From the IMG/VR virus record IMGVR_UViG_3300027963_000312, positions 1-25,437 of that record: DNA of 25,437 nt. One strand, 5' to 3'. Position numbers and translations under genes: made by a program. This document shows positions 1,306-25,072 of this stretch, piece by piece. The notes under the pieces are model-generated. The model was not told the origin of the DNA. It was given only the letters and a program-made list of their open reading frames with translations, and made no database searches. Every line of letters begins with the position of its first letter. Position 1 is the stretch's first letter. Origin of the DNA: a virus.

Positions 1306-2613
1306 GTGGGAAATGCTCGTAATCGTCAAGAACACAATGGTCGAGTTACCAGACCTAGAAGCGGAGATATTGCTCCGAAGGGGAATAGCGCACTTGCCAG
1401 AGCGGGCAGATTTGCCGATCCCGACACGCTACGAATCCTCTGGTATTCCAACGCACCATTCGCACCAACCGGTTACGGCACCCAAACAGCGCAAGTCGTC
1501 CAAAGGCTCATCAAAAAACACGAAGTAGCAATCCATGCGATGTATGGCATTGAGGGTATGGCTTCTATTTGGAATGGGATAAAACTTTATCCACGAGGGA
1601 TGTCAGCGTATTCAGATGATGTGCTTGTTGCGCATTGGATGGATTGGGCTAATGGCAATCGTGACATTCCAGCGATGTTGATGACGTTGTTTGATGTGTG
1701 GGTGTTGAAGTCACCATCGTTGGATCAGGTAGCGAATATCGCTTCTTGGGTTCCGATTGATCATGCGCCTTGCCCGCCTGAAGTGATTGCTTGGTGCAAG
1801 CGTCCTAATGTGAAACCGATTGCGATGTCTAAGTTTGGTTTGCAAATGTTGCAGAACGCTGGTGTTGATGCGATGTATGCGCCTCATGCGTTTGAAAAAG
1901 TTTTTGCTCCGACACCGAAGTTGGCTAATAGTCGTGGTGAGATGACAGGTCGTCAGCTGATGGAGGTTGATGAGGACAGGTTTGTTGTGATGATGAATGC
2001 TGCGAACAAAGGTCAGAATCCTTCACGCAAATCTTTTGCTGAGAACATTCTGGCGTTCGCTATCTTCGCTCAAGACCGTCCTGATGCTTTGCTGTATTTG
2101 CATACTGAACGTGATGGTGCGATGGGTGGAATCAACTTGGCTCACCTTCTTGATGCGTGTGGTGTGAAGCCTGAGCAGTACAAGATTGTTGACCCTTACG
2201 CTTATCGGACTGGTTTCCCTCAGCAGGCGTTGGCTGCGCTGTACACCGCTTCAGATGTGTTGTTGGCTTGCTCGATGGGTGAAGGTTTCGGTATTCCTGT
2301 TATCGAGGCGCAGGCTTGCGGTACGAGGGTCATCGTTTCTGATTACACGGCTCAGCCTGAGTTGGTTGGGGCTGGGTGGGCTGTGGACATTCAGCCGTTC
2401 TGGGATAGCCATCAACGGTCATGGTTCTGCACCCCTCAGGTACCGTCCATCGTGGATGCCCTGATACAGGCCTACGAGGCTCCTAGAGGCGTGTGCCAGG
2501 AGGCTGTGGACTTTGCAAGCCAATATGACGCTGATGCCGTATTTGAGAGCCATTGGAAGCCAATCATGAAGGAGTTGTCGGAATGGTGCCAGTCATCATC
2601 ATCCCCGTCCTAA
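1306..2613 (+). CDS. GT-B glycosyltransferase, GT4-like
   Basis: This 435-residue protein probably transfers a sugar from a nucleotide-sugar donor. The first strand of the N-terminal Rossmann domain is LRILWYSNAPFAPTGYG at about residues 42-58, with the glycine-rich acceptor loop usual in GT-B enzymes. The C-terminal half has the retaining GT4 signature: GEGFGIPVIEAQACG, giving an E-x7-E pair at Glu326 and Glu334, then a VSDYTAQPELVG donor-binding segment. The start chosen is GTG at 1306, six bases after AGGAG; no other ordinary start exists in this frame before the first Rossmann strand. The resulting 41 N-terminal residues are Arg/Asn/Gly-rich and poorly convincing, and a second frame overlaps them (see the 1313 entry). 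It lies between capsid and connector genes, so the acceptor may be the virion or a host surface glycan; the substrate is unknown. Confidence 0.85.
   Translation: MGNARNRQEHNGRVTRPRSGDIAPKGNSALARAGRFADPDTLRILWYSNAPFAPTGYGTQTAQVVQRLIKKHEVAIHAMYGIEGMASIWNGIKLYPRGMSAYSDDVLVAHWMDWANGNRDIPAMLMTLFDVWVLKSPSLDQVANIASWVPIDHAPCPPEVIAWCKRPNVKPIAMSKFGLQMLQNAGVDAMYAPHAFEKVFAPTPKLANSRGEMTGRQLMEVDEDRFVVMMNAANKGQNPSRKSFAENILAFAIFAQDRPDALLYLHTERDGAMGGINLAHLLDACGVKPEQYKIVDPYAYRTGFPQQALAALYTASDVLLACSMGEGFGIPVIEAQACGTRVIVSDYTAQPELVGAGWAVDIQPFWDSHQRSWFCTPQVPSIVDALIQAYEAPRGVCQEAVDFASQYDADAVFESHWKPIMKELSEWCQSSSSPS
1313..1528 (+). CDS. Possible small protein overlapping the glycosyltransferase start
   Basis: A 71-residue frame begins with ATG seven bases inside the GTG-started glycosyltransferase gene and ends 216 bases later. 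Its first 35 residues (starting MLVIVKNTMVELPDLEAEIL and continuing with LLRRGIAHL) form a plausible strand plus helix. They resemble the short 'LPxxxAxxLIxRGxA' type proteins often found directly after capsid genes in tailed phages. The last 35 residues are low-complexity Ser/Lys/Pro and look like a shadow of the other frame. Both frames could use the same AGGAG, which is spaced better for the GTG. No canonical -1 slippery heptamer was found that would join the frames. It could be a genuine overlapping gene, the remnant of a small head gene disrupted by the enzyme gene, or chance. Confidence 0.35.
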   Translation: MLVIVKNTMVELPDLEAEILLRRGIAHLPERADLPIPTRYESSGIPTHHSHQPVTAPKQRKSSKGSSKNTK

Positions 2614-3248
2614 ACAGGTATGACCTGCTTGACAGGTGCCTTCGGTCGATTGACTATCCGGTTGAAACTCTCATCATCATTGACAATGGTGGACAGTCCA
2701 CGTTGCATGATTGGCCTTGGGTCATTGACCGTCGAATGGTCAAGAACTATCACGTCTGGTCTATGCCCACCAATCTTGGTGTTGCTCCATCATGGAACAT
2801 CGGTATCAAAGCAACACCTCACGCTGACGGTTGGATCATTCTGAACTCTGATGCGTTCTTTGAGCCAGGTCAGTTAGAAGTTTTTTACAACGACTGCAAG
2901 CCTGATTCGGTGACATTGACTGAAGCTCAACCTGGTTGGTGTTGTGCATGGATTGGTTCTGAGGTTGTTGCCAAAGTTGGGTTGTTTTCGGAATGTTATG
3001 TTCCCGCCTACTTTGAGGACAACGATTTTCAGGAACGGGCTAAACGCCTAAATGTCGAGTTCTGGACTTCTGACGCTGGGGTCATTCATGACAACTCTTC
3101 TACTCTTTTATCTGCACCAGAACTACAGGAAAAGAATGCGAAAAGTTTTGCTGCCAATGGTGCGCTTCATGCGATGCGATGGCAGTCAGGTTTACCTGAT
3201 GCAGGTCATTGGGATTTAACACGACGAAGGGAATTGGGATGGGACTAG
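2583..3248 (+). CDS. GT-A glycosyltransferase, GT2-like
   Basis: This 221-residue protein has the layout of a family 2 (GT-A) glycosyltransferase. It opens with MVPVIIIPVLNRYDLLDRCL, the usual 'I-P-x-x-N-R' first strand and helix, then the strand TLIIIDNGG. It has NLGVAPSWNIGI at 64-75 and an N-S-D metal-binding motif at 88-90, where the family has DxD. Near the C-terminus are YFEDNDFQERAKRLN, typical of the catalytic ED region, and a final H-D-N-S-S. I chose ATG 2583 because AAGGAG lies eight bases upstream; an ATG at 2553 has no ribosome site. It overlaps the preceding glycosyltransferase by 31 bases and is surely co-translated with it. Donor and acceptor sugars cannot be read from the sequence. 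Confidence 0.82.
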   Translation: MVPVIIIPVLNRYDLLDRCLRSIDYPVETLIIIDNGGQSTLHDWPWVIDRRMVKNYHVWSMPTNLGVAPSWNIGIKATPHADGWIILNSDAFFEPGQLEVFYNDCKPDSVTLTEAQPGWCCAWIGSEVVAKVGLFSECYVPAYFEDNDFQERAKRLNVEFWTSDAGVIHDNSSTLLSAPELQEKNAKSFAANGALHAMRWQSGLPDAGHWDLTRRRELGWD

Positions 3249-3886
3249 AGGACTACAACCTTCTTCACGAAGGAGAAACAATTTATGTCATCGGGTCAGG
3301 TGCGACCTTAGATTATCTGTCACCTGATTTCTTTGATGACAAACTCAGCATCACGGTCAATTTCTCTGGGTCAGTTTTTGGGATGAAAAACTATTACTGC
3401 TTCAGTCATTATCACGGCGACGCAGTTCATGAGGCTCGACTTGATGAGTCAATCGCAGTCTTTACCCCGTTACGTGAACATGGAACCGATGCAGAGTTTC
3501 AAGGCTTCATGCCAAAGATCGTGACGTTCCATACCCGCACCGGCAGACCAGGTGTGTCGTTCAACCCGCATGACAAGGATTGGCCTGTTGAGTATGACCA
3601 GTTGGTTATCGGGTCTTCAGGGATTCATGGGGCGATGCACTTGGCTGCATACATGGGGGCGAAGTTCATTGTGTTGGTTGGGGCTGACTGCGGTTCGCTG
3701 GGTGGCAAGGACAGGGTTGATGGTTATGTAACTGGCGATACTCATTGGGCTTTATATGAGCAACACCTTCGAGCGATGAAGCAACGGTTGTGGGATGTGT
3801 ATTCCTGTCAGGTGTATTCGTTGAACCCGTTTGTGAACTATTCCCTTGAGGGTGTGAAGTATCGTGGTGCTGCGTCAATCAACTAG
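3239..3886 (+). CDS. DUF115-like / GT42-like putative sugar enzyme
   Basis: This 215-residue protein begins with a nucleotide-binding type loop, IYVIGSGATLDYL (residues 15-27), followed by a strand SITVNFSG. The pattern resembles the GxGxSL ... VN start of DUF115 (MptE-like, motility accessory factor) proteins and GT42 sialyltransferases. A second conserved-looking block is FIVLVGADCGSLGGKD, followed by TGDTHW. The likely role is transfer of an unusual sugar or pterin-like group, but the match is from memory and weak. ATG 3239 is preferred over TTG 3209 because GAAGGGA lies just upstream and it gives a 10-base overlap with the previous gene. It is the third member of the sugar cassette between capsid and connector. 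Confidence 0.5.
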   Translation: MGLEDYNLLHEGETIYVIGSGATLDYLSPDFFDDKLSITVNFSGSVFGMKNYYCFSHYHGDAVHEARLDESIAVFTPLREHGTDAEFQGFMPKIVTFHTRTGRPGVSFNPHDKDWPVEYDQLVIGSSGIHGAMHLAAYMGAKFIVLVGADCGSLGGKDRVDGYVTGDTHWALYEQHLRAMKQRLWDVYSCQVYSLNPFVNYSLEGVKYRGAASIN

Positions 3887-5466: not shown

Positions 5467-5757
5467 ATGAAGATAGCCCTTGAAGTTACATCGGCATTGG
5501 ATCAGAAGACTCGCACAGTTATTGCTGCGTTTCCTGATTTCATCGCTTTTGAAAACAAGTTCAATCGAAGCGTCGCAAAGTTTGAAGCAGAACTAACGCT
5601 TACAGACTTGGCTTATATTGGTTGGCATTCTGAGCACCGCCAAAAGAAAACTGGTTTAGATTTTGATTCGTGGATTAACGACATTGAGTCATTAGCGATT
5701 GGTGATGCTGATCAAGCTGTGATCGTCCCTTTGGAGACCAGTCAGCCCATTGGATGA
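5467..5757 (+). CDS. Tail assembly chaperone, short form (gpG-like)
   Basis: This 96-residue protein is the unshifted product of the chaperone locus between tail tube and tape measure genes. Siphophages use a short and a frameshifted long chaperone to coat the tape measure during tail assembly. The sequence is alpha/beta with charged helices (AFPDFIAFENKFNRSVAKFE, then LAYIGWHSEHRQKKTG), like the G-type proteins of actinophages. GGAGG lies upstream but is partly sequestered. Its stop overlaps an ATG (ATGA at 5754-5757). The slippery heptamer near the 3' end indicates that a fraction of ribosomes bypass this stop. Confidence 0.75.
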   Translation: MKIALEVTSALDQKTRTVIAAFPDFIAFENKFNRSVAKFEAELTLTDLAYIGWHSEHRQKKTGLDFDSWINDIESLAIGDADQAVIVPLETSQPIG

Positions 5758-5876
5758 TTGCATACCTATCTGTTGAGACAGGTATCGCACCATCGGTGTT
5801 GCTGGCAGAAACTCCTCGAATGCTATTTACAATGCTTGCTTATTTGCGTTGGAGAGCAATTCATCTGAACAAGTAG
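5467..5876 (+). CDS. Tail assembly chaperone, -1 frameshifted long form (gpG-T-like)
   Basis: A -1 shift on CCCTTTG joins the first 89 residues of the short chaperone to 47 further residues read from 5733, giving about 136 residues. The added tail ends with MIAYLSVETGIAPSVLLAET, then PRMLFTMLAYLRWRAIHLNK, the kind of hydrophobic and basic segment that binds the tape measure in T-type extensions. The frame is open through the whole join. The same 40-residue tail also has an ATG of its own at 5754 overlapping the first stop, so coupled re-initiation is an alternative that would give a separate small protein at 5754-5876. Confidence 0.72.
5727..5733 (+). promoter_or_regulatory. Slippery heptamer for -1 frameshift
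   Basis: The bases C CCT TTG sit in the zero frame exactly as X XXY YYZ (CCC, TTT, G), 22 bases before the short-form stop codon. An ATACCT/AGGTAT hairpin begins about 28 bases downstream. Position, phase and the open -1 frame all agree with the conserved chaperone frameshift of siphophages. CCCTTTG is a less common heptamer than lambda GGGAAAG. Confidence 0.68.
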
Positions 5877-5885
5877 TCTGTTGAT

Positions 5886-6488
5886 ATGGCGCAAGCATTC
5901 GGCAGAGCAGGAGAAGTTTCAATTACTGGTGGCAACGATGCCATTGAAATTGTTGGTATCAATAAGTTTCTCCGTGATGCTTCTAGAGCGAATCAAAAGT
6001 TTGACGCTGAAGCTCGTATTGCTGCTGGAAAAGTTGCAGAAAACCTTTTAGCCAAGACTCAAACTGAGGCTGGTTCGGTGACTCGTAATCGCCAAGCTAC
6101 CGAGGTGATGAAAGGGATGAAGGTTGGCAAAGATCGAATCCCTAAACTTTATTTAGCAAGCAAATCTAGTTTTGTTTCAAAGTCCAATCCGAACAGGAAT
6201 CGTAAGCGTAAGGTGACCAGAGGTGATGTGTTCTTTGGTGCAGAGTTCGGTGGTGGCAAGTTCGGCAAGGGGGCGAAGACCTCTGCTGGCGGAAGGTCGG
6301 TAAATAAAAAGGGTGAGTCCCGTGATGGGTATCGCAAAGGTGGCGGGTACACCAGCCAGTTTCTTCGCCATCGTGGCAGGGCAGGATATTTCTTTTGGCC
6401 TACTGTCCGTAAAGAAAAAGAGAATATAGCCAGAGAATATCTGGACGCTATTGAGAAGGTGTTGAAGACCCTTGACGATAATGCTTGA
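5886..6488 (+). CDS. Putative HK97 gp10-like neck/minor tail protein
   Basis: This 200-residue, strongly basic protein starts with a helical, charged region (VGINKFLRDASRANQKFDAE) that is typical of the gp10-like family. It passes through a Gly/Lys/Arg-rich middle and ends with FLRHRGRAGYFFWPTVRKEK followed by a long amphipathic helix. The FFWPTV block before a terminal helix is common in such head-tail joining proteins. Its location after the chaperones instead of before the tube gene is unusual for that family. No ribosome site is visible before ATG 5886. The last codons (GAT AAT GCT TGA) overlap the -35 part of the promoter of the next gene. Confidence 0.5.
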   Translation: MAQAFGRAGEVSITGGNDAIEIVGINKFLRDASRANQKFDAEARIAAGKVAENLLAKTQTEAGSVTRNRQATEVMKGMKVGKDRIPKLYLASKSSFVSKSNPNRNRKRKVTRGDVFFGAEFGGGKFGKGAKTSAGGRSVNKKGESRDGYRKGGGYTSQFLRHRGRAGYFFWPTVRKEKENIAREYLDAIEKVLKTLDDNA

Positions 6489-6512
6489 CTTGAGCTGAGT
6501 TTCCTGTACCCT
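6485..6512 (+). promoter_or_regulatory. Promoter of the primase-like gene, replication-module type
   Basis: TTGACT (6485-6490), a 16-base spacer and TACCCT (6507-6512) precede GGAGGAGGGG and ATG 6529. The context TAATGCTTGAC ... CCTG-TAC closely copies the promoter at 18982-19009. The -35 lies across the stop codon of the preceding gene. The -10 is weak in its inner bases. Confidence 0.5.
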
Positions 6513-6528
6513 TCTAGGAGGAGGGGTT

Positions 6529-7239
6529 ATGGCAGTTCTGTTTAAGAATGTGAAGTCTATTTATCCGAAGCCGTTGGCTTCGTCGTGGGAGCAGCTCAAA
6601 GAGTTATTGTCGTTCCATGAGGAGAACTCAGTCAAGCAGGCTGGGGCGTTGTGGTCTCCGGTTGAGTATGACTCTGGCACCACCAGAGGTAACAACAACG
6701 TCAGGTTTGTTGAGGCGTTGGTTGTGGACATGGACGGTGAAGCCTTTGATGATGCTCGACTAGACGGTTTGGAATGGTTTGCCTATTCCACCTATTCGCA
6801 TCGCTTGGATGATCCTCACTATCACCTGGTCTTGCCGTTAGCGGAGAAGGTGCCTGCTTCGTTGTGGCGGGTGGTGTGGTCTGAGTTGCATGACCGTATT
6901 GGTTTGGTTGGTGACCCTCAGACTAAAGACCCTGCACGTATTTTCTATCTACCTCAACACGCACCGGATCAGCCGTTTGAGTTCCATGAAGGTCATGGTG
7001 TGTTGTTGGATTCTTCGTTCAGGTTGGATGTTGAACCTGTCATCAATCCTGTGTCGCCTCGCTCGAAGCAGGTTCGTCAACCTCGTCAGCGTCGTGCTGG
7101 TTCAGAGATAATGTCTGAGGCTTGGTGGAATGAGCCTGTAGATATTTCTCGTTGGGATGGCCTGTCGGGGAAGGCTTTATATTCTGCGATGCTTGATGAG
7201 TTTATTGCTTTGCGGAATGGGTTGTCTGTTATTGAGTAG
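6529..7239 (+). CDS. Primase-like (AEP-type) protein within the tail operon
   Basis: This 236-residue protein carries a pattern known from small archaeo-eukaryotic-type primase/replication domains. The strand ALVVDMDG contains Asp67 and Asp69 as likely metal ligands. It is followed by AYSTYSHRLDDPHYHLVLPL, with Ser90-His91 and His97/His99 where relatives have 'T-x-S-H ... p-x-y-R-l-v-i-P-l', and by KDPARIFYLP with Lys133, Asp134 and Arg137. The C-terminal 70 residues are basic and then acidic, without a helicase domain. It therefore looks like a stand-alone primase-polymerase or replication initiator core. It sits between a tail protein and the tape measure gene, with its own promoter and a very strong ribosome site, both unlike its neighbours. 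Codon choice is G/T-rich as in the flanking tail genes, so it is not a very recent arrival. A catalytically dead nucleic-acid-binding protein is the main alternative. Confidence 0.6.
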   Translation: MAVLFKNVKSIYPKPLASSWEQLKELLSFHEENSVKQAGALWSPVEYDSGTTRGNNNVRFVEALVVDMDGEAFDDARLDGLEWFAYSTYSHRLDDPHYHLVLPLAEKVPASLWRVVWSELHDRIGLVGDPQTKDPARIFYLPQHAPDQPFEFHEGHGVLLDSSFRLDVEPVINPVSPRSKQVRQPRQRRAGSEIMSEAWWNEPVDISRWDGLSGKALYSAMLDEFIALRNGLSVIE

Positions 7240-7248: not shown

Positions 7249-9855
7249 ATGGCTGGTGAGCGCACGTTTGTTGTTAAGTTTATTTCTGACATTCTCGGTG
7301 CCACCAAAGGCATCAAGAAAGTTGGGGATGACTTAGGAACCCTAGGTAAACAGGTTGATACTGGGTTCGGTCAAAAGTTCAAGAGCGTCATGCCATCGTT
7401 CAAACAGTTTGCGGTTGCTGGTACCGCTGCGTTTGCAGCTGCTAGTGCTGGTGCCTATAAGGCAATCCAATCTGCCTCTGACTTGGCTGAATCACAGTCC
7501 AAGGTTGGGGTGGTCTTTGGTGATTCAGCAAAACTTGTAAATGATTTTGCTAAGACTTCTGCGACTTCGTTTGGTATAACGAAGCAGGCTGCTCTTGAGG
7601 CAACTGGTACTTATGGCAACTTGTTCCAGGCGTTCGGTGTAGGTCAAGGTGAAGCAGCAACAATGAGTACAACGCTTGTCGCTTTGGCTGCTGACTTGGC
7701 TTCGTTCAATAACACAACTGTTGATGATGCGATTCTTGCTTTGCGTTCTGGTTTGTCTGGTGAAACTGAACCGTTGAAGAAATACGGTGTTGCGATTAAC
7801 GATGTTCGGTTGAAGGAGCAGGCTCGAAATATGGGTCTCTATTCGGGGACTGGAGCGTTGAGCGTTACCGCTAAGACACAGGCTGCTTATGCTTTGATCC
7901 TTAAGGACTCGACGTTGGCTCAAGGTGACTTTGAACGCACGAGCGGTGGCTTGGCTAACCAACAAAGAATCCTCAAAGCACAACTATCGGATGTGACTGC
8001 TCAGATTGGTTCAGTCATGATTCCGGCATTCCTGGGTGCTGTGTCGTTCATCAACGATTCAATGCTTCCAGCCTTCCGTGATTTTGGTTCAGCTTTAGAA
8101 GAAGGCGGTCTGGCAGGAGGGTTTGATTTTATCGCAACTAAGTTCAAAGAATCTGCACCTATGGTGTTGGAGGCTTTAGGTTCAATGATTACTCAGGCTG
8201 TTGAATGGATTGGCACATCAGGATTGCCGATGCTCTTTGATGGTATCAACAAACTTGCTACGGCTTTGACGGATTGGATTGAACCTCGAATCCCAATGTT
8301 CATCGGAAACCTCACCAAGTTTTTGATGGCTGGATATGAATGGATTTATACAAAGGGTTTGCCAATGTTGTTGGATGCTGTACAGAAACTTGGTGACACG
8401 CTTGCCAGTTTCGTCGGTAAAGCTGCACGTCAACTTCCAGCACAACTGGTAAATATGCTCGTCACTATTGGTGGATGGATATTGTCTGAAGGTATCCCAG
8501 CACTTTTGGCTATGGGTACTCGACTTGCTGGGTCGCTAATTAAGTGGACTTTGACTATAGGTGGACAACTTATCGCTGGTTTGGGTGGGGCTGTGGTGGC
8601 TTTGGTTGCTGCGGTACCTGACATCTTTGCTGGCTTCGTTAAAGGTATTGCAAACATCGCAGTCAATACAGTCAAGGGTTTTGTTGGCAAGTTTGGTGAA
8701 ATGAAAACAGCCTTAGCCAATGTTGCGGTATCTGTAGTCAACACTCTTATTGATGTATTCAATAAGATTCCTTTGATCCCTAACATCCCGAAGATTACTT
8801 TGGATACCAAGAAACTTGGTGCTCAGGTTGGTTTGACTGGTGCGCAACTTCAAACCGTTAACGAAAGATTTGATGACGTTAACGGCACTTTGAAGGTTGG
8901 TTCTGATGTGATGAACGATTTCAAAGAAGAGACCAAGAAGACTGAGACTGCTACTGGTGGTGCTTCTAAGACGATGAAGACTGCTAAAGAAAAGTTGGAG
9001 ATGTACACGGATGCTTTGAAGAAAAGCACTTCAGCGCAGAAGGGTTTTACAAAGGCTCAAAAGGACACGAAGTCTGCTCAGGATGATTTGACTCAAGCCA
9101 ATAGTGATGTCATCGCAGCTCAGGCTGCTTTAGATAAGGCCGTGTCTGGGTTTGGTGCTGGTTCACCGGAAGCGATTAAAGCACAGAAGGAATTGGATCA
9201 GGCTCAGCGTGGGGTTGAGCGGGCTGGGTATCGTGTCGAGGAATCGTTGTTTGCTGTGGCTGATGCTGAGAAGGCTTTGGCTGATGTTCGTGCTGATCCT
9301 GAGTCAACTCCTCAGGCGATTCGTGAGGCTGAGATTGCGTTGGCTGAGGCGAAGTTGTCTACGAAGGATGCTGTTGATGAGCAGAAGGATGCGACTGATG
9401 GTCTGATTGAATCGCAGTCGTATTTGAATGAGTTGATTGGTGGGGCGATTGTTGGTTCAGCATTTTATGCACAGTATTCTGATGCTTTGACGGAGGCTCA
9501 GAAGCGTCAGGCTGATGCACAGGAAAAGCTCGCTGATGCGAAGGATCGTGAGGCTGAGGCTCAGGAGCGTTTGAATGAGGCTTTGCAGAAGACTGCTGAT
9601 TTGATTACTAAGTATCCGAAGGTGCTTGGTGGTATGCCGAACCCTGTTGCTATTACTACTGGCGCACAAACTTTGGCTGATAACAATTCTGGAAGTCTGT
9701 TCAATGGTGGCGGTATGGGTAATTTCAACATTGAAATCAATGCTGGTTTGGGTGCGAGTGGCATTCAGGTTGGTCAGGAGCTTGACCAGTATTTACGAGA
9801 GTATCTCGGTTTTACCGGTAAAGAGTTCTCGTTTGGTTCTATTGGGACTTTGTAA
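7249..9855 (+). CDS. Tape measure protein
   Basis: At 868 residues this is the longest gene of the window and occupies the tape measure position after the chaperones. The N-terminal part (about 1-280) is a mix of helices and Gly/Ala-rich stretches, including KQFAVAGTAAFAAASAGAY and a QSKVGVVFGDSA region typical of tape measure N-domains. Residues 290-520 contain repeated hydrophobic helices with Trp (AVEWIGTSGLPML, AGYEWIYTKGLPML, TIGGWILSEGIPAL), a clear internal repeat. Residues 570-790 are long Ala/Lys/Glu/Gln coiled coils. By the rule of about 0.15 nm per residue, the tail would be near 130 nm. No lysozyme or peptidase domain was seen. The protein starts without a ribosome site and ends in a TAATG overlap with the next gene. 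Confidence 0.92.
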   Translation: MAGERTFVVKFISDILGATKGIKKVGDDLGTLGKQVDTGFGQKFKSVMPSFKQFAVAGTAAFAAASAGAYKAIQSASDLAESQSKVGVVFGDSAKLVNDFAKTSATSFGITKQAALEATGTYGNLFQAFGVGQGEAATMSTTLVALAADLASFNNTTVDDAILALRSGLSGETEPLKKYGVAINDVRLKEQARNMGLYSGTGALSVTAKTQAAYALILKDSTLAQGDFERTSGGLANQQRILKAQLSDVTAQIGSVMIPAFLGAVSFINDSMLPAFRDFGSALEEGGLAGGFDFIATKFKESAPMVLEALGSMITQAVEWIGTSGLPMLFDGINKLATALTDWIEPRIPMFIGNLTKFLMAGYEWIYTKGLPMLLDAVQKLGDTLASFVGKAARQLPAQLVNMLVTIGGWILSEGIPALLAMGTRLAGSLIKWTLTIGGQLIAGLGGAVVALVAAVPDIFAGFVKGIANIAVNTVKGFVGKFGEMKTALANVAVSVVNTLIDVFNKIPLIPNIPKITLDTKKLGAQVGLTGAQLQTVNERFDDVNGTLKVGSDVMNDFKEETKKTETATGGASKTMKTAKEKLEMYTDALKKSTSAQKGFTKAQKDTKSAQDDLTQANSDVIAAQAALDKAVSGFGAGSPEAIKAQKELDQAQRGVERAGYRVEESLFAVADAEKALADVRADPESTPQAIREAEIALAEAKLSTKDAVDEQKDATDGLIESQSYLNELIGGAIVGSAFYAQYSDALTEAQKRQADAQEKLADAKDREAEAQERLNEALQKTADLITKYPKVLGGMPNPVAITTGAQTLADNNSGSLFNGGGMGNFNIEINAGLGASGIQVGQELDQYLREYLGFTGKEFSFGSIGTL

Positions 9856-12377: not shown

Positions 12378-12682
12378 TGGCACATTACGCATTCATAGAC
12401 GAAAACAATATTGTTGTTGAGGTAATTGTTGGTCGTGATGAGAACGATTTACCTGATGATGTTTTGTCTTGGGAATCTTATTATGGCGAGTTTCGTGGCA
12501 TGACTTGTCTGCGAACTTCATATAACACTTATCTTGACGTTAATGGTGTTTCGCAACATCGTGAAGGTGGTACACCGTTTCGTGGAACATTTGCAGGTAT
12601 CGGATACACATACGATCCTGATGCAGATGTCTTTGTTGGCTTTCCCATTGTGGAAACTCCATATTCAGTAACAGCAAGCTAA
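12377..12682 (+). CDS. Small fibre-associated protein
   Basis: This 101-residue protein opens with AHYAFIDENNIVVEVIVGRD, a pattern common in small proteins encoded next to fibre genes of marine and freshwater phages, where they accompany fibre tips. It continues with a Trp-Glu-Ser-Tyr-Tyr turn, a YNTYLDVNGVSQHREGGTPFRGTFAGIGYTYD region cut here into its key parts (Asn-Thr-Tyr, His-Arg, Phe-Arg-Gly) and an acidic, aromatic C-terminus. It is read from a TGATG junction with the fibre gene and itself ends at a TAATG junction with the sulfotransferase gene. No enzyme motif is visible. A structural or assembly role is likely. Confidence 0.5.
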   Translation: MAHYAFIDENNIVVEVIVGRDENDLPDDVLSWESYYGEFRGMTCLRTSYNTYLDVNGVSQHREGGTPFRGTFAGIGYTYDPDADVFVGFPIVETPYSVTAS

Positions 12683-13380
12683 TGATTAGTTACTTGGCAG
12701 GATTGCCACGAAGCGGTTCAACATTATTGGCAAGCGTAATGAACGAGAACCCGGATGTGTTCGTGTCATCATCCAGCCCGTTATGTAATGTTTTATACCA
12801 TTCGCATCGATTGTGGCAGGCGCAAATTGCGTTAAAGGCAAACCCAAATCCGTTGGCTGTTCACAATTCTTTAAGTGCAATAGTTCCAGCGTTCTATGCT
12901 GACCGCACCGAGAAACTTATTGTAGATAAAGCATTCTCTTGGGGCGTGGCAGATAACCTTTCTTTGTTGTTGCAGTATGCTCCAGAACAACCACGTTTTA
13001 TCGTCATGACAAGAAACCTTGACGATGTTATTGATTCGCTAACACGAATCGTATTTGCAAACCCAAATAACAATTTTGACCAAGACTTCACAGGCGAGCG
13101 AACACCAGAAGCGATACGGCAGCATCTATGTTTAGATGGTGGAATCGTTGATATGTCTGTTCGCTCACGAGACACGTTGTTGTCCCAACACCATGACCGT
13201 TGCTTTGTCGTCGAATATGAACGCCTAGTGAAATCACCACAACAAATACTAAATCAACTTTATGATTTCTACGGTATGGAACAATTTGTGCATAACTTCC
13301 ATTCCATCACAAATAGCAATACCGATAACGACAGCGTTTGGGGAATCCCTGATATGCACAAAATTAAAACTTCTTTATGA
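12682..13380 (+). CDS. PAPS-dependent sulfotransferase
   Basis: This 232-residue protein has the two cofactor sites of the sulfotransferase family that uses 3'-phosphoadenosine 5'-phosphosulfate. The 5'-phosphosulfate loop is GLPRSGSTLLASV at residues 7-19, and the 3'-phosphate site is FIVMTRNLDDVIDSLTR at about 106-122 with Arg111 and Ser119. Between them lies KLIVDKAFSWG, matching the 'l-v-d-K' strand of the family. The C-terminus has CFVVEYERLVKSPQQILNQL, again typical ('v-x-Y-E-d-L-v-x-x-P'). It would move a sulfate onto a sugar or tyrosine hydroxyl. It starts at a TAATG overlap with the fibre-associated gene, so it is expressed with virion tail proteins. Its target is unknown: fibre, virion glycan or host cell-surface glycan are all possible. 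Confidence 0.85.
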   Translation: MISYLAGLPRSGSTLLASVMNENPDVFVSSSSPLCNVLYHSHRLWQAQIALKANPNPLAVHNSLSAIVPAFYADRTEKLIVDKAFSWGVADNLSLLLQYAPEQPRFIVMTRNLDDVIDSLTRIVFANPNNNFDQDFTGERTPEAIRQHLCLDGGIVDMSVRSRDTLLSQHHDRCFVVEYERLVKSPQQILNQLYDFYGMEQFVHNFHSITNSNTDNDSVWGIPDMHKIKTSL

Positions 13381-13404: not shown

Positions 13405-14763
13405 GTGTTCAAGGTGAATACAAGTAGTAAGTCCCGTTGGCTAGTCCTTGTCCCAGCGTTAATAGGTTTTCTTTTCACAGCATCGTCGGCTGAGGCTGAC
13501 ACGTTTGGTGTGTGGGAGTTCTCTAAGTCTTGTCTCGCTGCTGAGGGTGGGTCGGTTGTTCCGATTGAGGGTGGGTTTACTCTTGTTGGTGCTGATGGTG
13601 GGACGTGTGCTGGGAAGTCTCATTATGTTCGGATGCAGGCCACGATTCCTGAAGGCACTAATCAGATTGGTTTCTTGTGGTCGTATCAGACGAACGATGG
13701 TTCTTGGTATGACCCTCCACAAATCATTCTCAATGGGGTTATCACGAAGCTGACGAATGAGAACAACGCCACCGGATCAGGGTTGATTCAAGTTCAGGCT
13801 GGGGATGTGTTTGCGTTCCAGCAGTACTCGACTGATTCATGCTGCCAACCGGGCAACCTCACGATTACAGGCCTGACATTAGGCTTGGGTGAATGGGTAT
13901 CTACAACCTCATCCACAACAACGACGACGACCTCTACTACTACTGTCCCGCTAGTGACTGTCCCTGTCACCAACCTGACTACTACGACTCTTCAAACAGT
14001 CGTGCCATCAACCACAACGGAACCACCACAAACAACAACAATCCCAGAAACAGTTTCAACGGTTACCTCAACTAGTTCAACGACAACAAGTACGTCAACG
14101 ACTGTAGCCCCAACAACGACCACGACGACTGTGGTTTACACGCCTCCGGCAACGACAACTACCGTTCCTGAAACAACGACAACCACCACAACGGAACCAG
14201 AACCAGCCCCCACCACAACACTCCCGCCTCCGTTAGAAACAACCACATCAACTTCAACAACGACATCAACTGTCCCCCCTGTGACCACAACTCAACCAGA
14301 TGTGACTACAACGCTACAAGCCCCCACAGATGAGCCTGAACCGCTCACCCAAACAGAACTACTAAACACCCTGAAAGCCCTCTCAGAAGCCACGACAGAG
14401 GCCATAGAAGCCATCGTAGATTCAGTCCTCAGCAAAAACCTAGACACCAGCCAAGCGACCCTGCTCATCACCAGCCCAGCCGTATTAGAAAACATCACCA
14501 CCGCCCAAGCCGAACAACTCTTCAGCGAAATCGCCCCAACCGAACTCAGCCCCGACGAAGCCGAAGCAGTAGTCGAAGCGGTGCAAAATGCACCATCATC
14601 TGTGCGTAAAGCGTTTGAGTCTGTGTTGAATATCTTCCAAGGTTTCGCTGACAATTATGTTGCGCTGAACTCAACGGTGCCGGTGAAAACCCGTCGTGCG
14701 CTGATTGCGTTGAGTGCTGTATTCTTGACGGTAGCCCCTGCACCTACACGAAGGATTCGGTGA
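13405..14763 (+). CDS. Secreted mucin-like surface protein with C-terminal anchor
   Basis: This 452-residue protein has four parts. Residues 1-31 form a Sec signal peptide (basic start, WLVLVPALIGFLFTASS core, AEA before the likely cut). Residues 32-165 form a beta-rich domain with four Cys (SCLA, TCAG and the CC pair in DSCCQPG) and several Trp. Residues 166-310 are a Thr/Ser/Pro/Val stalk with many Thr runs. Residues 315-425 are acidic and helical, and a final hydrophobic stretch ALIALSAVFLTVA plus TRRIR looks like a membrane anchor with positive stop. No LPXTG motif is present. GTG 13405 is taken as start; GTG 13414 is equally possible, and neither has a good ribosome site. Third-position use changes from G/T-rich to A/C-rich at the stalk and back near 14590, so the gene seems assembled from parts. 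It is not obviously a virion protein; a role on the infected cell surface, such as blocking further infection, is speculative. Confidence 0.65.
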   Translation: MFKVNTSSKSRWLVLVPALIGFLFTASSAEADTFGVWEFSKSCLAAEGGSVVPIEGGFTLVGADGGTCAGKSHYVRMQATIPEGTNQIGFLWSYQTNDGSWYDPPQIILNGVITKLTNENNATGSGLIQVQAGDVFAFQQYSTDSCCQPGNLTITGLTLGLGEWVSTTSSTTTTTTSTTTVPLVTVPVTNLTTTTLQTVVPSTTTEPPQTTTIPETVSTVTSTSSTTTSTSTTVAPTTTTTTVVYTPPATTTTVPETTTTTTTEPEPAPTTTLPPPLETTTSTSTTTSTVPPVTTTQPDVTTTLQAPTDEPEPLTQTELLNTLKALSEATTEAIEAIVDSVLSKNLDTSQATLLITSPAVLENITTAQAEQLFSEIAPTELSPDEAEAVVEAVQNAPSSVRKAFESVLNIFQGFADNYVALNSTVPVKTRRALIALSAVFLTVAPAPTRRIR

Positions 14764-22820: not shown

Positions 22821-23072
22821 ATGAAAACTAAAACACGCAAGAACAATGGCTACAACTATCCCGCCTCAGCCTTACTGAAACTGTTCCCAGAAGATACGTG
22901 GGCATCAACAATCGGTGAACATCTCGGAGTTGGTAGAGCTGCAATTCAAACATGGCGAGAAGGCAACACCTACCTAGACCAATGGCGAGCAGATAAATAT
23001 GCTTGCTTGCTGGGCAGACATCCTTCAGAGATTTGGTCTAACTGGTTTGATGAAGTGGAGTTGGCATCGTGA
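22821..23072 (+). CDS. HTH protein next to the replicase gene
   Basis: ATG 22821 follows TAGGAGGGAT. This 83-residue protein has a basic start (KTKTRKNNGYNY) and a helix-turn-helix core: TWASTIGEHLGVGRAAIQTW, in which the second helix reads VGRAAIQTWREG, then a helix DQWRADKYACLLGRHPSEIW. The form is that of Cro/XRE-like or replication-accessory HTH domains. It overlaps the prim-pol/helicase gene by four bases (GTGA), so it probably acts with it, for example in origin binding, or regulates the operon. It lies behind one of the few gaps in the early region (22782-22820), in which I see no strong promoter. Confidence 0.65.
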   Translation: MKTKTRKNNGYNYPASALLKLFPEDTWASTIGEHLGVGRAAIQTWREGNTYLDQWRADKYACLLGRHPSEIWSNWFDEVELAS

Positions 23073-25072
23073 CAATGCGTGAGGAAGCCATCAAACTCGC
23101 TGAACTTGGTATCAGGGTTATTCCGATTAAGCCTGGGCAGAAGTATCCACCGATGCCACAATGGCAAGACAAAGCGAGCAACGACATCCACGTCGTCAAC
23201 GATTGGTGGACGAATCAATACTCAGGTTACGGAATCGGTATCGCAACGGGGCAAACCAAACACGGACGCATCTTCGTACTCGACGTGGATGACCGTGAAG
23301 AATACAAAGGCTCAGACACCCTGCACGACCTACAAGAAAAGTACGGTCAACTACCCGAAACAGTCACAGCGATAACTGGTACCGGTGGACAACACCTGTA
23401 CTTCTACTGTGAAGAAGATATACGCAACGATGCAGGATCACGCCTCGGAGTAGGGCTGGACATCAGGGGAAGTGGGGGTCAGGTTTTATGCAGCCCAACT
23501 GTTCACCCCAACGGCAGAAGCTACCAATGGGAACATGGCCTCAGCCCACACGAACGACGACCAGCCAAAGCCCCAGACTGGCTCGTCAAACTCTTAACCA
23601 AACAACCAGAGATGGTCAAACCAATCGGTCAGCCTGATTCATTCCTAACAGACCCGAACACCCCCTCAGCCCGTTACTGTGCGAAGACAACGTGGGAAGA
23701 ACTGCTTATCCCTGACGGCTGGACGCTTGCAAAGGTTGACCGTCATGGTGAACAGCATTGGGTTCGCCCAGGCAAAAATCCAAAGGACGGAACCTCAGCC
23801 ACCATCGGGCATAACGGGAATGATGCACTCATCGTCTTCACCTCTAGCATCCCTTGGCTACCCGAAGGGGGCTACAACCGCTTCGGATACTATGCAGCAT
23901 CAAAGCATGGTGGAGACTGGAAACAAGCCTCCCAAGCCTTCCTAGCCACCTCTGAAGGCAAACCTGAACCCATCACACCAATCCCCACACCAGACGAAAT
24001 GCTCTCGATGCTGGTGGACTGGAAAGCATTCTGGTCACTTGAACACGCAACAGAAGAATGGTTAGCCAAACCACTCATCGCCAAAGGCAGACAGACCGCA
24101 CTATTCGCTGGAGCCAAAACAGGTAAGTCCTGGTTGACACTCAATGTCACCGCAGCACTAGCCACCGGCAAACCCATCCTCGGACAACCAGCACAACCAC
24201 CAGTCCACGTCCTCTACCTTGACTACGAAATGATTGAGTCAGACCTCTACGAACGCCTAGAACAATTCGGCTACACAGAAGACGACGACCTCTCCCACCT
24301 CCACTATGCACTCATCCCAAACCTCCCACCACTCAACACCACCGAAGGTGCCTCAGCCGTAATGAAACTCGTAGAGCTAACCAAGGCTGAAGTCGTAGTG
24401 ATAGACACCACAGGACGAGCCATTGATGGTGAAGAGAACTCAGCAGACTCCTATCGTGAGTTCGCACGCACCACAGGACTAGCCCTCAAACGCTCCAACA
24501 TCTCCTGCATCCGCACAGACCACGCAGGTAAAGATGGTGGCAAGAAGCAAGGCCAACGAGGTTCCTCAGCCAAGAACGATGACGTGGACATCGTGTACCG
24601 CCTTGACAAGTCAGACGATGGCCTAACCCTGAAGCGCACCCACACCCGCATCAGCTGGGTACCAGAAACCGTCTCACTTGTCGTAGAAGACTTTGACGAC
24701 ATCATCACCATCAGACTTCGCACACGGGAAACAAAAGGCTGGACACCAGCCGAAATAGCCCTAGCCAAACGCCTAGACGACCTAGGCATCCCACAAGACG
24801 CAGGAGTCAACGAAACCCAACGCATCGCCAAAGAACGAGGACTCACACTCGCACGCAAATCAATCCTCGGACGAGCCATCCAATGTCGCCAACAACCACG
24901 ACCAGACCCCCTAGACACGGGAACCACCCTTGGGAACCACTTCACAGAACCCAACACGGACAAGGGAACCACCCCCCGTACCGTAAGGTACGGTGGGGTT
25001 CCGTCCCAGCCCCAGCCCACCTCAGCCCTAAGCAATCAAGACAACATCAACATCGAATCAGAACTTTGGTAA
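23069..25072 (+). CDS. Prim-pol / helicase replication fusion protein
   Basis: This 667-residue protein unites a bifunctional primase-polymerase domain with a RecA-fold helicase. Residues 1-175 have the prim-pol set: a start typical of the family (AIKLAELGIRVIPIKPGQKY), VLDVDDREE with Asp72 and Asp74 as metal ligands, GTGGQHLYF with His109, and GLDIRGSGGQVLCSP with Asp131 and Arg133. Residues 335-560 have Walker A GAKTGKS (348-354), Walker B VVVIDTTGR (Asp446), and DHAGKDGGKKQGQRGSSAKN, like RepA/AAA_25-type hexameric helicases. The C-terminal 100 residues are basic and then disordered. The start is GTG 23069 (GTGA overlap) or ATG 23075. It should prime and unwind DNA for phage replication. 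Direct 9-base repeats and a hairpin lie in its last 160 bases. Confidence 0.9.
   Translation: MTMREEAIKLAELGIRVIPIKPGQKYPPMPQWQDKASNDIHVVNDWWTNQYSGYGIGIATGQTKHGRIFVLDVDDREEYKGSDTLHDLQEKYGQLPETVTAITGTGGQHLYFYCEEDIRNDAGSRLGVGLDIRGSGGQVLCSPTVHPNGRSYQWEHGLSPHERRPAKAPDWLVKLLTKQPEMVKPIGQPDSFLTDPNTPSARYCAKTTWEELLIPDGWTLAKVDRHGEQHWVRPGKNPKDGTSATIGHNGNDALIVFTSSIPWLPEGGYNRFGYYAASKHGGDWKQASQAFLATSEGKPEPITPIPTPDEMLSMLVDWKAFWSLEHATEEWLAKPLIAKGRQTALFAGAKTGKSWLTLNVTAALATGKPILGQPAQPPVHVLYLDYEMIESDLYERLEQFGYTEDDDLSHLHYALIPNLPPLNTTEGASAVMKLVELTKAEVVVIDTTGRAIDGEENSADSYREFARTTGLALKRSNISCIRTDHAGKDGGKKQGQRGSSAKNDDVDIVYRLDKSDDGLTLKRTHTRISWVPETVSLVVEDFDDIITIRLRTRETKGWTPAEIALAKRLDDLGIPQDAGVNETQRIAKERGLTLARKSILGRAIQCRQQPRPDPLDTGTTLGNHFTEPNTDKGTTPRTVRYGGVPSQPQPTSALSNQDNINIESELW
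24919..24972 (+). repeat. Three direct GGGAACCAC repeats, iteron-like
   Basis: GGGAACCAC occurs at 24919-24927, 24932-24940 and 24964-24972, near the end of the replicase gene; the first and third copies extend to GGGAACCACCC. The copies fall in two different reading frames, so the repeats are not due to a repeated peptide. A partly inverted copy (GTGGGGTTCC) lies at 24993-25002. Short direct repeats next to a replication gene suggest a protein binding array or origin. Confidence 0.45.
24965..25002 (+). other. Hairpin with GTAA loop at the end of the replicase gene
   Basis: CCGTACC (24976-24982) pairs perfectly with GGTACGG (24987-24993) around a GTAA tetraloop (GNRA type). Outside it, GGAACC (24965-24970) can pair with GGTTCC (24997-25002), leaving small bulges. 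The whole is about 38 bases within coding sequence. No T-run follows, so it is probably not a terminator. It could be part of an origin, or an mRNA structure. Confidence 0.45.

What the first reader, a model, noticed from the sequence alone, without database searches (positions are those of the whole stretch)
6529..7239. Stand-alone primase-like gene inside the tail operon, in a phage that already has a prim-pol/helicase
The window shows an Asp-Met-Asp, Ser-His, His-Tyr-His and Lys-Asp-x-x-Arg motif series like that of small AEP-type primases, in a gene between a tail protein and the tape measure gene. A second, unambiguous prim-pol sits at 23069. A replication enzyme placed among tail genes with its own promoter and a very strong ribosome site is not the usual siphophage order. 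It might prime a different template, inject with the virion, or be an anti-defence or mobile insertion.
Basis: partly seen in the sequence, partly recalled or inferred. Interest (0 to 1): 0.72.

Follow-up and report, generated by a model that had tools for sequence, protein, structure and literature searches.

The report
Stand-alone primase gene beside tape-measure gene
A large group of bacterial viruses known from environmental DNA keeps a small primase-like enzyme gene, with its own promoter, among the genes that build the virus tail, in addition to other replication genes, and what this extra enzyme does has not been tested.

Summary
[quoted passage not shown] AlphaFold models of two subfamilies both match the AEP domain of cyanophage S-2L PrimPol best (Foldseek E 6.1e-5 and 4.7e-6; Z 9.0 and 10.1). 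Asp67, Asp69, His91, His99, Asp129, Asp134 and Arg137 are present in 202 of 202 relatives. A PF09250 prim-pol lies at 23069.

It is not a recent insertion. In 187 of 190 relatives with enough sequence an ORF with a tape-measure-type start begins within 80 nt downstream; the 3 exceptions are satellite-like contigs. Among loci fetched by a tail gene, 47 of 47 close relatives have it, 1 of 11 distant ones does. It diverges in step with five tail genes (Mantel r 0.85-0.96); dN/dS is about 0.12. A promoter-like sequence precedes it in 118 of 121 loci of its subfamily, against 0 of 903 upstreams of six neighbouring genes.

Best reading: an active accessory primase, expressed independently, acting in trans on phage DNA; its place reflects an old insertion. 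Activity is unproven; virion ejection and phage-satellite conflict stay open.

The parts
6529..7239 (+). Stand-alone AEP primase-like gene (236 aa). Catalytic core about residues 1-165; basic, low-confidence linker about 165-190; small helical C-terminal part 192-229.
6485..6512 (+). Conserved sigma-70-like promoter TTGACT-N16-TACCCT of the AEP gene
   Evidence: pattern in 118 of 121 loci of its subfamily against 0 of 903 upstream regions of six neighbouring genes
6516..6526 (+). Strong ribosome-binding site (AGGAGGAGGGG) before the AEP start
   Evidence: SD-like match in 121 of 121 loci of its subfamily (61 of 81 of the rest)
6727..6735 (+). Motif I codons D67-M-D69
   Evidence: D67 and D69 in 202 of 202
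6799..6825 (+). Motif II region, H91 to H97-Y-H99 (H99 aligned with S-2L H118)
6913..6939 (+). Motif III/IV, D129 to R137 (D129 aligned with S-2L D146; R137 with R154, three residues before R157)
5886..6488 (+). Upstream neighbour at the gp10/neck position (label weak: no family hit itself; homologue in L179 hits phrog_5 'tail completion or Neck1' at E 0.015)
7249..9855 (+). Downstream neighbour: tape measure gene, ATG 9 nt after the AEP stop
23069..25072 (+). Second AEP-type protein of the phage: PF09250 prim-pol fused to an AAA_25 domain

Best explanation
The gene encodes a catalytically competent stand-alone AEP of the same broad group as the N-terminal domains of VirE-type phage primase-helicases. 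An ancestor of a large group of (probably actinobacterial) siphophages gained it just before the tape measure gene and kept it. It is transcribed from its own host-type promoter, so it need not wait for late tail expression. It most likely makes or extends short primers on phage single-stranded DNA in trans (gap filling, repriming or lagging-strand help) beside the main replication system. Shown: predicted fold, conserved active-site residues, purifying selection, inheritance with the tail genes, fixed position, conserved promoter-like sequence. Inferred: enzymatic activity, promoter function and timing, host, and the DNA it acts on.
For: PHROG primase match. AEP fold in two models: 6zp9 is the only Foldseek match at E <= 0.001 in both, and the rows shown at Z >= 5 are AEPs. 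Active-site residues 202 of 202. dN/dS median 0.12. Mantel r 0.854-0.961 with five tail genes over 84 loci, 0 of 499 permutations as high. One copy in each of the 27 of 30 searched records that have it. Of those 27, 13 also have a PF09250 prim-pol (10 of 12 over 29 kb), and G014 (32.1 kb), without a PF09250 match, has a replisome-organiser-like gene: it goes with different replication systems, as an accessory would. A stand-alone relative of the same PHROG in Vibrio phage henriette (308 aa) lies next to a DNA helicase gene.
Against: No activity has been measured. There is no helicase partner next to it. Its tight spacing to the tape measure gene (9 or 16-17 nt in 174 of 187 cases) is unexplained if the function is only replication. 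Motif II differs from its VirE-type relatives (H-Y-H for K/R-x-R). Only one solved structure matches above Z 8, TM-scores are 0.38-0.49, and the residue match to S-2L rests on a weak profile alignment (probability 2.9%). The AEP-bearing G011 (29.9 kb) has no PF09250 match either, so I cannot say what its main primase is.
Confidence: 0.55

Rival explanations
1. The AEP is loaded into the virion with the tape measure protein and ejected into the cell, where it acts on incoming DNA.
For: In phage loci with enough sequence it is always directly before an ORF with a tape-measure-type start (187 of 190 loci, the other 3 satellite-like; N-terminus MAGERTF in 171 of 187), and it has a strong ribosome site.
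Against: No virion data. It has its own promoter-like sequence, which the tail genes tested lack. The same family occurs in three satellite-like contigs without a tape measure gene beside it. A literature search for ejected primases found no paper with all five terms, which is weak evidence.
Confidence: 0.13
2. It is a weapon or shield in conflict: anti-defence, or phage against satellite.
For: An AEP 50-53% identical (L197, L199) sits in contigs with an HK97-type capsid gene and, in L199, a Terminase_4 small terminase gene; two of three have a tyrosine integrase; they look like phage satellites. Accessory genes also settle just upstream of the AEP: a ribbon-helix-helix ORF in L179 and a SprT-like protease in L229.
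Against: No PADLOC match in four members. dN/dS 0.12 and one copy per record look like a housekeeping gene rather than an arms-race gene. The satellite-like contigs are short and may be fragments.
Confidence: 0.14
3. A moron-like cargo gene or recent mobile insertion with no role in the phage cycle.
For: Own promoter-like sequence; 9 of 11 distant relatives lack the gene, and in four of five whose ORFs I listed the preceding gene abuts the tape-measure-like ORF (L092 has another order).
Against: Inheritance with the tail genes; present in 47 of 47 close relatives fetched without using it; no tyrosine integrase in 17 of 17 AEP-bearing phage records tested; base composition within the range of its neighbours.
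Confidence: 0.06
4. The AEP fold was co-opted for a tail-assembly or translational-coupling role, without catalysis.
For: Fixed place and spacing before the tape measure gene.
Against: The presumed metal- and nucleotide-binding positions are invariant in 202 of 202, which a dead enzyme would hardly keep.
Confidence: 0.06

Closest known systems
Cyanophage S-2L PrimPol, AEP domain (PDB 6ZP9)
   Same: Best structural match of both models (Z 9.0 and 10.1); His, Asp and Arg positions of motifs II-IV align (residue roles from passages of PMC8065100)
   Different: S-2L protein has AEP, PriCT-2 and C-terminal domains to residue 737 and lies near helicase and nuclease genes; ours is stand-alone and among tail genes. 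Overall sequence similarity is very weak
VirE/NrS-1-type phage primase-helicases (phrog_9765, phrog_256; for example Emery gp96, Dina gp45)
   Same: Closest by sequence: E 4.7e-17 and 7.6e-9; W20, G39, R53, V58, D67, D69, Y86, P103, D129, T132, R137, P142 shared by all eight aligned
   Different: Emery gp96 and Dina gp45 are about 800 aa and lie outside tail genes; they have K-Y-R and R-L-R where ours has H-Y-H
Vibrio phage henriette 12B8 VPDG_00043
   Same: Stand-alone protein of 308 aa, phrog_9765 E 1.5e-94
   Different: Next to a DNA helicase gene; 24% identical
UniProt A0A6J5S580, uncultured Caudovirales phage
   Same: 63% identical, 234 aa; top BFVD match; the same family
   Different: Named 'Uncharacterized protein'; its gene context was not seen
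PrimPol-PV1 AEP supergroup
   Same: Conserved Arg followed by a hydrophobic residue downstream of motif III (R137-I138), as in its motif IV (PMC5862659, outline and section 6 parts 1-2)
   Different: Clustering with its families was not tested here

Membership tests
AEP (archaeo-eukaryotic primase) superfamily | AEP catalytic fold | tested here: met
   Two models, best match 6zp9, rows shown at Z >= 5 are AEPs
AEP (archaeo-eukaryotic primase) superfamily | Motif I, two acidic residues (DxD) | tested here: met
   D67, D69 in 202 of 202
AEP (archaeo-eukaryotic primase) superfamily | Motif II His (variable in some families, PMC5862659) | tested here: met
   H91 and H99 in 202 of 202; H99 aligns with S-2L H118 (hhalign probability only 2.9 percent, E 0.016), so which His it is stays unsure
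AEP (archaeo-eukaryotic primase) superfamily | Motif III acidic residue | tested here: met
   D129 in 202 of 202, shared with VirE-type primases and aligned with S-2L D146
AEP (archaeo-eukaryotic primase) superfamily | Primer synthesis or extension activity | not testable with these tools
   needs purified protein
VirE/NrS-1-type primase-helicase | Helicase domain fused to the AEP domain | tested here: not met
   236 aa; 14 representatives are 221-239 aa; no helicase family in the five scanned
VirE/NrS-1-type primase-helicase | Sequence similarity of the AEP domain | tested here: met
   phrog_9765 E 4.7e-17, phrog_256 E 7.6e-9
PrimPol-PV1 supergroup | Invariant Arg of motif IV | tested here: met
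   R137 in 202 of 202; feature as described in PMC5862659
PrimPol-PV1 supergroup | Clusters with PolpTN2, PrimQH, PrimHYQ and related families | not tested
   no clustering was run
Virion or tail structural protein | Present in virions | not testable with these tools
   no proteomics
Virion or tail structural protein | Fold of a known tail protein | tested here: inconclusive
   no such match named among the listed rows, but absence proves nothing
Moron (independently transcribed prophage cargo) | Own promoter | tested here: met
   by sequence conservation only
Moron (independently transcribed prophage cargo) | Own terminator | tested here: inconclusive
   only 9 nt separate the AEP stop from the tape measure start; the scan lists a 5-pair terminator-like stem inside the AEP gene at 7159-7176, but finds no more such sites than shuffles (11 against 12.7)
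Moron (independently transcribed prophage cargo) | Carried by temperate phages | tested here: inconclusive
   0 of 17 AEP-bearing phage records have a tyrosine integrase; records may be fragments and serine integrases were not sought

The most novel reading that the evidence does not exclude
A dedicated primase tied to the tape measure gene: made with it and ejected through the tail, or used against (or shared with) capsid-gene-carrying satellites that may need this phage group's tails, so that a replication enzyme acts at DNA entry or in phage-satellite rivalry rather than at the normal fork.
Probability: 0.17. Interest if true: 0.82.

Novelty: new variant of a known kind. Interest (0 to 1): 0.55.

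Why it matters
Phage primases are usually in replication modules, fused or next to a helicase (established knowledge; the INPHARED relatives examined fit). Here hundreds of IMG/VR contigs (341 and 503 relatives counted by two overlapping scans, of which 80 each were kept) carry a stand-alone AEP, and in the phage loci examined it sits at one site before the tape measure gene with its own promoter-like sequence. Either an accessory primase is important enough to be kept in small genomes (longest AEP-bearing record searched 35.8 kb), or a primase has been drawn into DNA entry or satellite conflict. The same enzyme in satellite-like contigs gives a concrete way to ask which, and activity can be tested on one short protein.

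Tried and rejected
Recent or mobile insertion: rejected by synteny, Mantel tests and the count on loci fetched with a tail gene instead of the AEP. Relation to the phage's own prim-pol at 23069: BLASTP finds nothing (best E 0.64), so not a duplicate that sequence can show. Sequence match to solved structures: best E 1.1, chance-like, with the protein and 0 hits with the profile; only fold comparison found the AEPs. Pfam and NCBIfam: no hit for the window protein. Relatives in cellular genomes: two scans of genome contigs gave 32 and 15 pattern matches, none a relative; the patterns were narrow. Plasmids: 11 weak matches at 21-27% identity. Rooting the AEP tree with Emery, Dina and henriette: outgroup branches far too long, bootstrap not settled, and the program warns that the L197 and L229 branches may be joined falsely; whether satellite-like copies came from phages or the reverse is not decided. 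Promoter pattern: my first pattern missed the more distant loci (0 of 81); a second, made after looking at those sequences, fits 58 of 80, so that figure is post hoc. Chance copies of the promoter: with 2 mismatches the window has 7 matches against 5.9 expected; only the site at 6485 is exact.

Ascertainment: the loci were fetched with the AEP itself and cannot show how common it is; (tail-terminator query) is the fair set, used: 80 loci, of which 22 reach less than 3 kb beyond the terminator (18 without and 4 with the AEP) and were set aside, 58 counted. In one search no locus fell in the 55-75% band; that band comes only from AEP-fetched loci (46 of 46). The 30 records and the 22 were chosen by me from the longer contigs. 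My notebook entry after says 18 AEP-bearing records without integrase; the call shows 17.

Papers searched for a report of such a gene. No title or abstract start in those listings names an AEP in a tail operon; of freshwater actinophage papers, PMC6802176 and PMC10202952 have no 'primase' in the main text (passages only). Most subscription papers are not in that library. PMC4538821, PMC8718748, PMC8065100 and PMC10690885 were seen as passages only; PMC5862659 as outline and two of four parts of section 6. The other papers were seen in listings only.

Full report
What is there. Window 6529-7239 (+) encodes 236 aa. The window is the whole of a 25,437-base virus record. Upstream are a capsid gene (34% identical to the PF05065 capsid protein of L199), glycosyltransferases, a head-tail adaptor, a tail terminator and a major tail protein, a tail-assembly-chaperone-like gene with a frame-shifted extension (my reading of the translation), and a gene at the gp10/neck position with no family hit of its own. 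Nine bases downstream of the stop starts the tape measure gene. A WhiB-like gene and a distantly similar phage of Pontimonas point to an actinobacterial host; this is inference.

What it is. The protein has no Pfam or NCBIfam match but matches PHROG phrog_9765 'DNA primase' at E 4.7e-17 and phrog_256 'DNA helicase' at 7.6e-9, over about profile positions 68-204 of 939 and 71-192 of 798. In INPHARED, tblastn finds 84 records; the 40 listed are 24-31% identical, mostly annotated as primases, helicases or VirE proteins, and none of the 84 covers 80% of the query. AlphaFold with 54 relatives gives mean pLDDT 77.5, pTM 0.66, with residues 165-190 below 50. Foldseek puts the S-2L PrimPol AEP domain first, E 6.1e-5, the only match at E <= 0.001 of 184 at E <= 10. 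VIA-align gives it Z 9.0, rmsd 3.4, 136 aligned, then RepB', archaeal and human primase subunits, CAPP, Prim-PolC and LigD polymerase domains at Z 5.0-6.3. A second model, from the other subfamily (L171, 35 sequences, pLDDT 79.7), gives the same top match, E 4.7e-6 and Z 10.1, rmsd 3.2, 138 aligned. Lower rows are more distant AEPs and Rep-type folds, and at Z 2-2.4 a few unrelated proteins. The tool warns that Z under 8 may mean only a common arrangement; only the S-2L row exceeds it. TM-scores are modest (0.38-0.49). In BFVD the top match is an uncharacterized phage protein 63% identical, followed by VirE and NrS-1-like proteins among the named rows.

Active site. I extracted 202 AEP proteins from the loci fetched (149 distinct). 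Fourteen representatives below about 88% identity to each other span 35-100% identity to the window. D67, D69, T88, S90, H91, H99, D129, T132, D134, R137 and L141-H144 are present in all 202. Against S-2L PrimPol (residue roles in PMC8065100, passages) hhalign aligns H99 with H118, D129 with D146 and R137 with R154 (E 0.016, probability 2.9%, so only suggestive). D67, D69, D129, T132 and R137 are shared by all eight sequences aligned with three more distant phage primases, of which Emery and Dina have K-Y-R and R-L-R, and henriette K-L-R, where the window has H97-Y-H99.

Age and inheritance. IMG/VR holds 341 relatives by one query and 503 by another (overlapping; 80 kept from each). Two phage subfamilies appear, about 43% identical to each other, plus small groups L090, L229/L240 and L197/L199/L238. 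In 187 of 190 AEP loci with at least 400 nt downstream an ORF of at least 120 aa starts within 80 nt, 107 times at 9 nt and 67 times at 16-17 nt, 171 times beginning MAGERTF; the three exceptions are L197, L199 and L238 (some contigs count twice). Loci fetched with a tail-terminator alignment instead: 80, of which 58 reach 3 kb beyond that gene; the AEP is in 47 of 47 with a terminator at least 75% identical and in 1 of 11 below 55%. Of five AEP-less relatives whose ORFs I listed, phiPsal1, L089, L094 and L096 have the gene at the neck position abutting the tape-measure ORF, and L092 has a different order. phiPsal1's gene there shows no BLASTP similarity to the window's, and its tape measure only a weak one, so the comparison is positional. 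AEP distances follow those of five tail genes over 84 loci (Mantel r 0.854-0.961; 0 of 499 permutations as high) and, within the window's subfamily (48 loci), r 0.541-0.721. There the AEP varies less (mean distance 0.115) than the neck-position gene (0.247) but more than the terminator (0.084). dN/dS to the window's copy has a median of 0.12 over the 75 of 80 loci that differ by more than 3%. GC3 is 0.525 against 0.27-0.56 for 18 other genes. This is an old, constrained gene, not a recent insert.

Expression. TTGAC-N16-19-TAnnnT lies within 70 nt before the start in 118 of 121 loci of the window's subfamily, and before none of 903 starts of six neighbouring tail genes; all 121 have a ribosome-site-like match. 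In the 80 other loci with enough sequence (including L090, L229 and one satellite-like contig) a variant, TTG[AC][AC]-TAnnCT, chosen after looking, is found in 58, again 0 of 903 controls. No RNA data exist here, so promoter activity is inferred. The tape measure gene has no strong ribosome site of its own in the window, so its translation may be coupled to the AEP: inference.

Company. Of 30 longer records that I chose, 27 have exactly one AEP and 14 have a PF09250 prim-pol, 13 of them AEP-bearing. Of AEP-bearing records over 29 kb, 10 of 12 have PF09250; G011 and G014 do not. G014 has a replisome-organiser/initiator-like gene, and G026 has the prim-pol without the AEP. The AEP is thus not tied to one replication module. 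None of 17 AEP-bearing phage records has a tyrosine integrase. All these records may be fragments.

Satellite-like relatives. L197, L199 and L238 (4.4-7.4 kb) carry an AEP with an HK97-type capsid gene on the other strand (PF05065 in all three). L199 has a Terminase_4 small terminase gene, and similar ORFs are seen by eye in L197 and L238. L197 and L199 have a tyrosine integrase, L238 none. L197 has a replication-initiator-like gene. The window's tail genes find nothing in L197 and L199, and no ORF scanned there is a tail gene; not every ORF was scanned. L197 and L199 AEPs are 50-53% identical to the window's; L238's is 89% identical to L197's. They resemble capsid-forming satellites (as described in PMC10690885, passages), but portal, protease and large terminase were not seen in these short contigs. 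The tree groups them with L229/L240 (93/82) but warns that this join may be false, and its root is unsure.

How it works. Best supported: a working accessory AEP expressed from its own promoter that makes or extends primers on phage DNA in trans, confidence 0.55. Ejection with the tape measure protein, satellite or defence conflict, inert cargo and non-catalytic co-option are the rivals. None of these tools can show activity, timing or virion presence.

Verdict. Interest 0.55.

Noticed in passing
L197 1-7363, L199 1-5691, L238 1-4442: Satellite-like contigs with an AEP of this family, an HK97-type capsid gene, a small terminase gene (Pfam in L199, by eye in the others), a tyrosine integrase in two of three, and no tail gene recognised.
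   Followed up: partly
L179 7620-7996: A 78-aa ORF and a 47-aa ribbon-helix-helix ORF (RHH_1 E 1.8e-5) between the neck-position gene and the AEP; similar text replaces the promoter before the AEP in several other distant loci.
   Followed up: partly
L229 7264-7998: A 244-aa SprT-like ORF (E 7.8e-5, below Pfam's cut-off) in the same spot between the neck-position gene and the AEP.
   Followed up: no
window 5757-5876: Frame-shifted extension after the tail-assembly-chaperone-like gene (ends SVETGIAPSVLLAETPRMLFTMLAYLRWRAIHLNK), like the usual G/GT arrangement.
   Followed up: no
window 1306-3886: Two glycosyltransferase genes and a weakly MptE-like gene between capsid and neck genes; phiPsal1 has glycosyltransferases at the same place.
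   Followed up: no
window 12682-13380: Sulfotransferase-like gene (Sulfotransfer_3 E 1.4e-14) after the tail genes.
   Followed up: no
window 13405-14763: 452-aa protein with long Thr/Ser runs and what looks like a signal sequence; no PHROG match.
   Followed up: no
L090 2062-2076: The most diverged tail-operon AEP has TACAAT ending 6 nt before its GTG start, which suggests a leaderless transcript.
   Followed up: no
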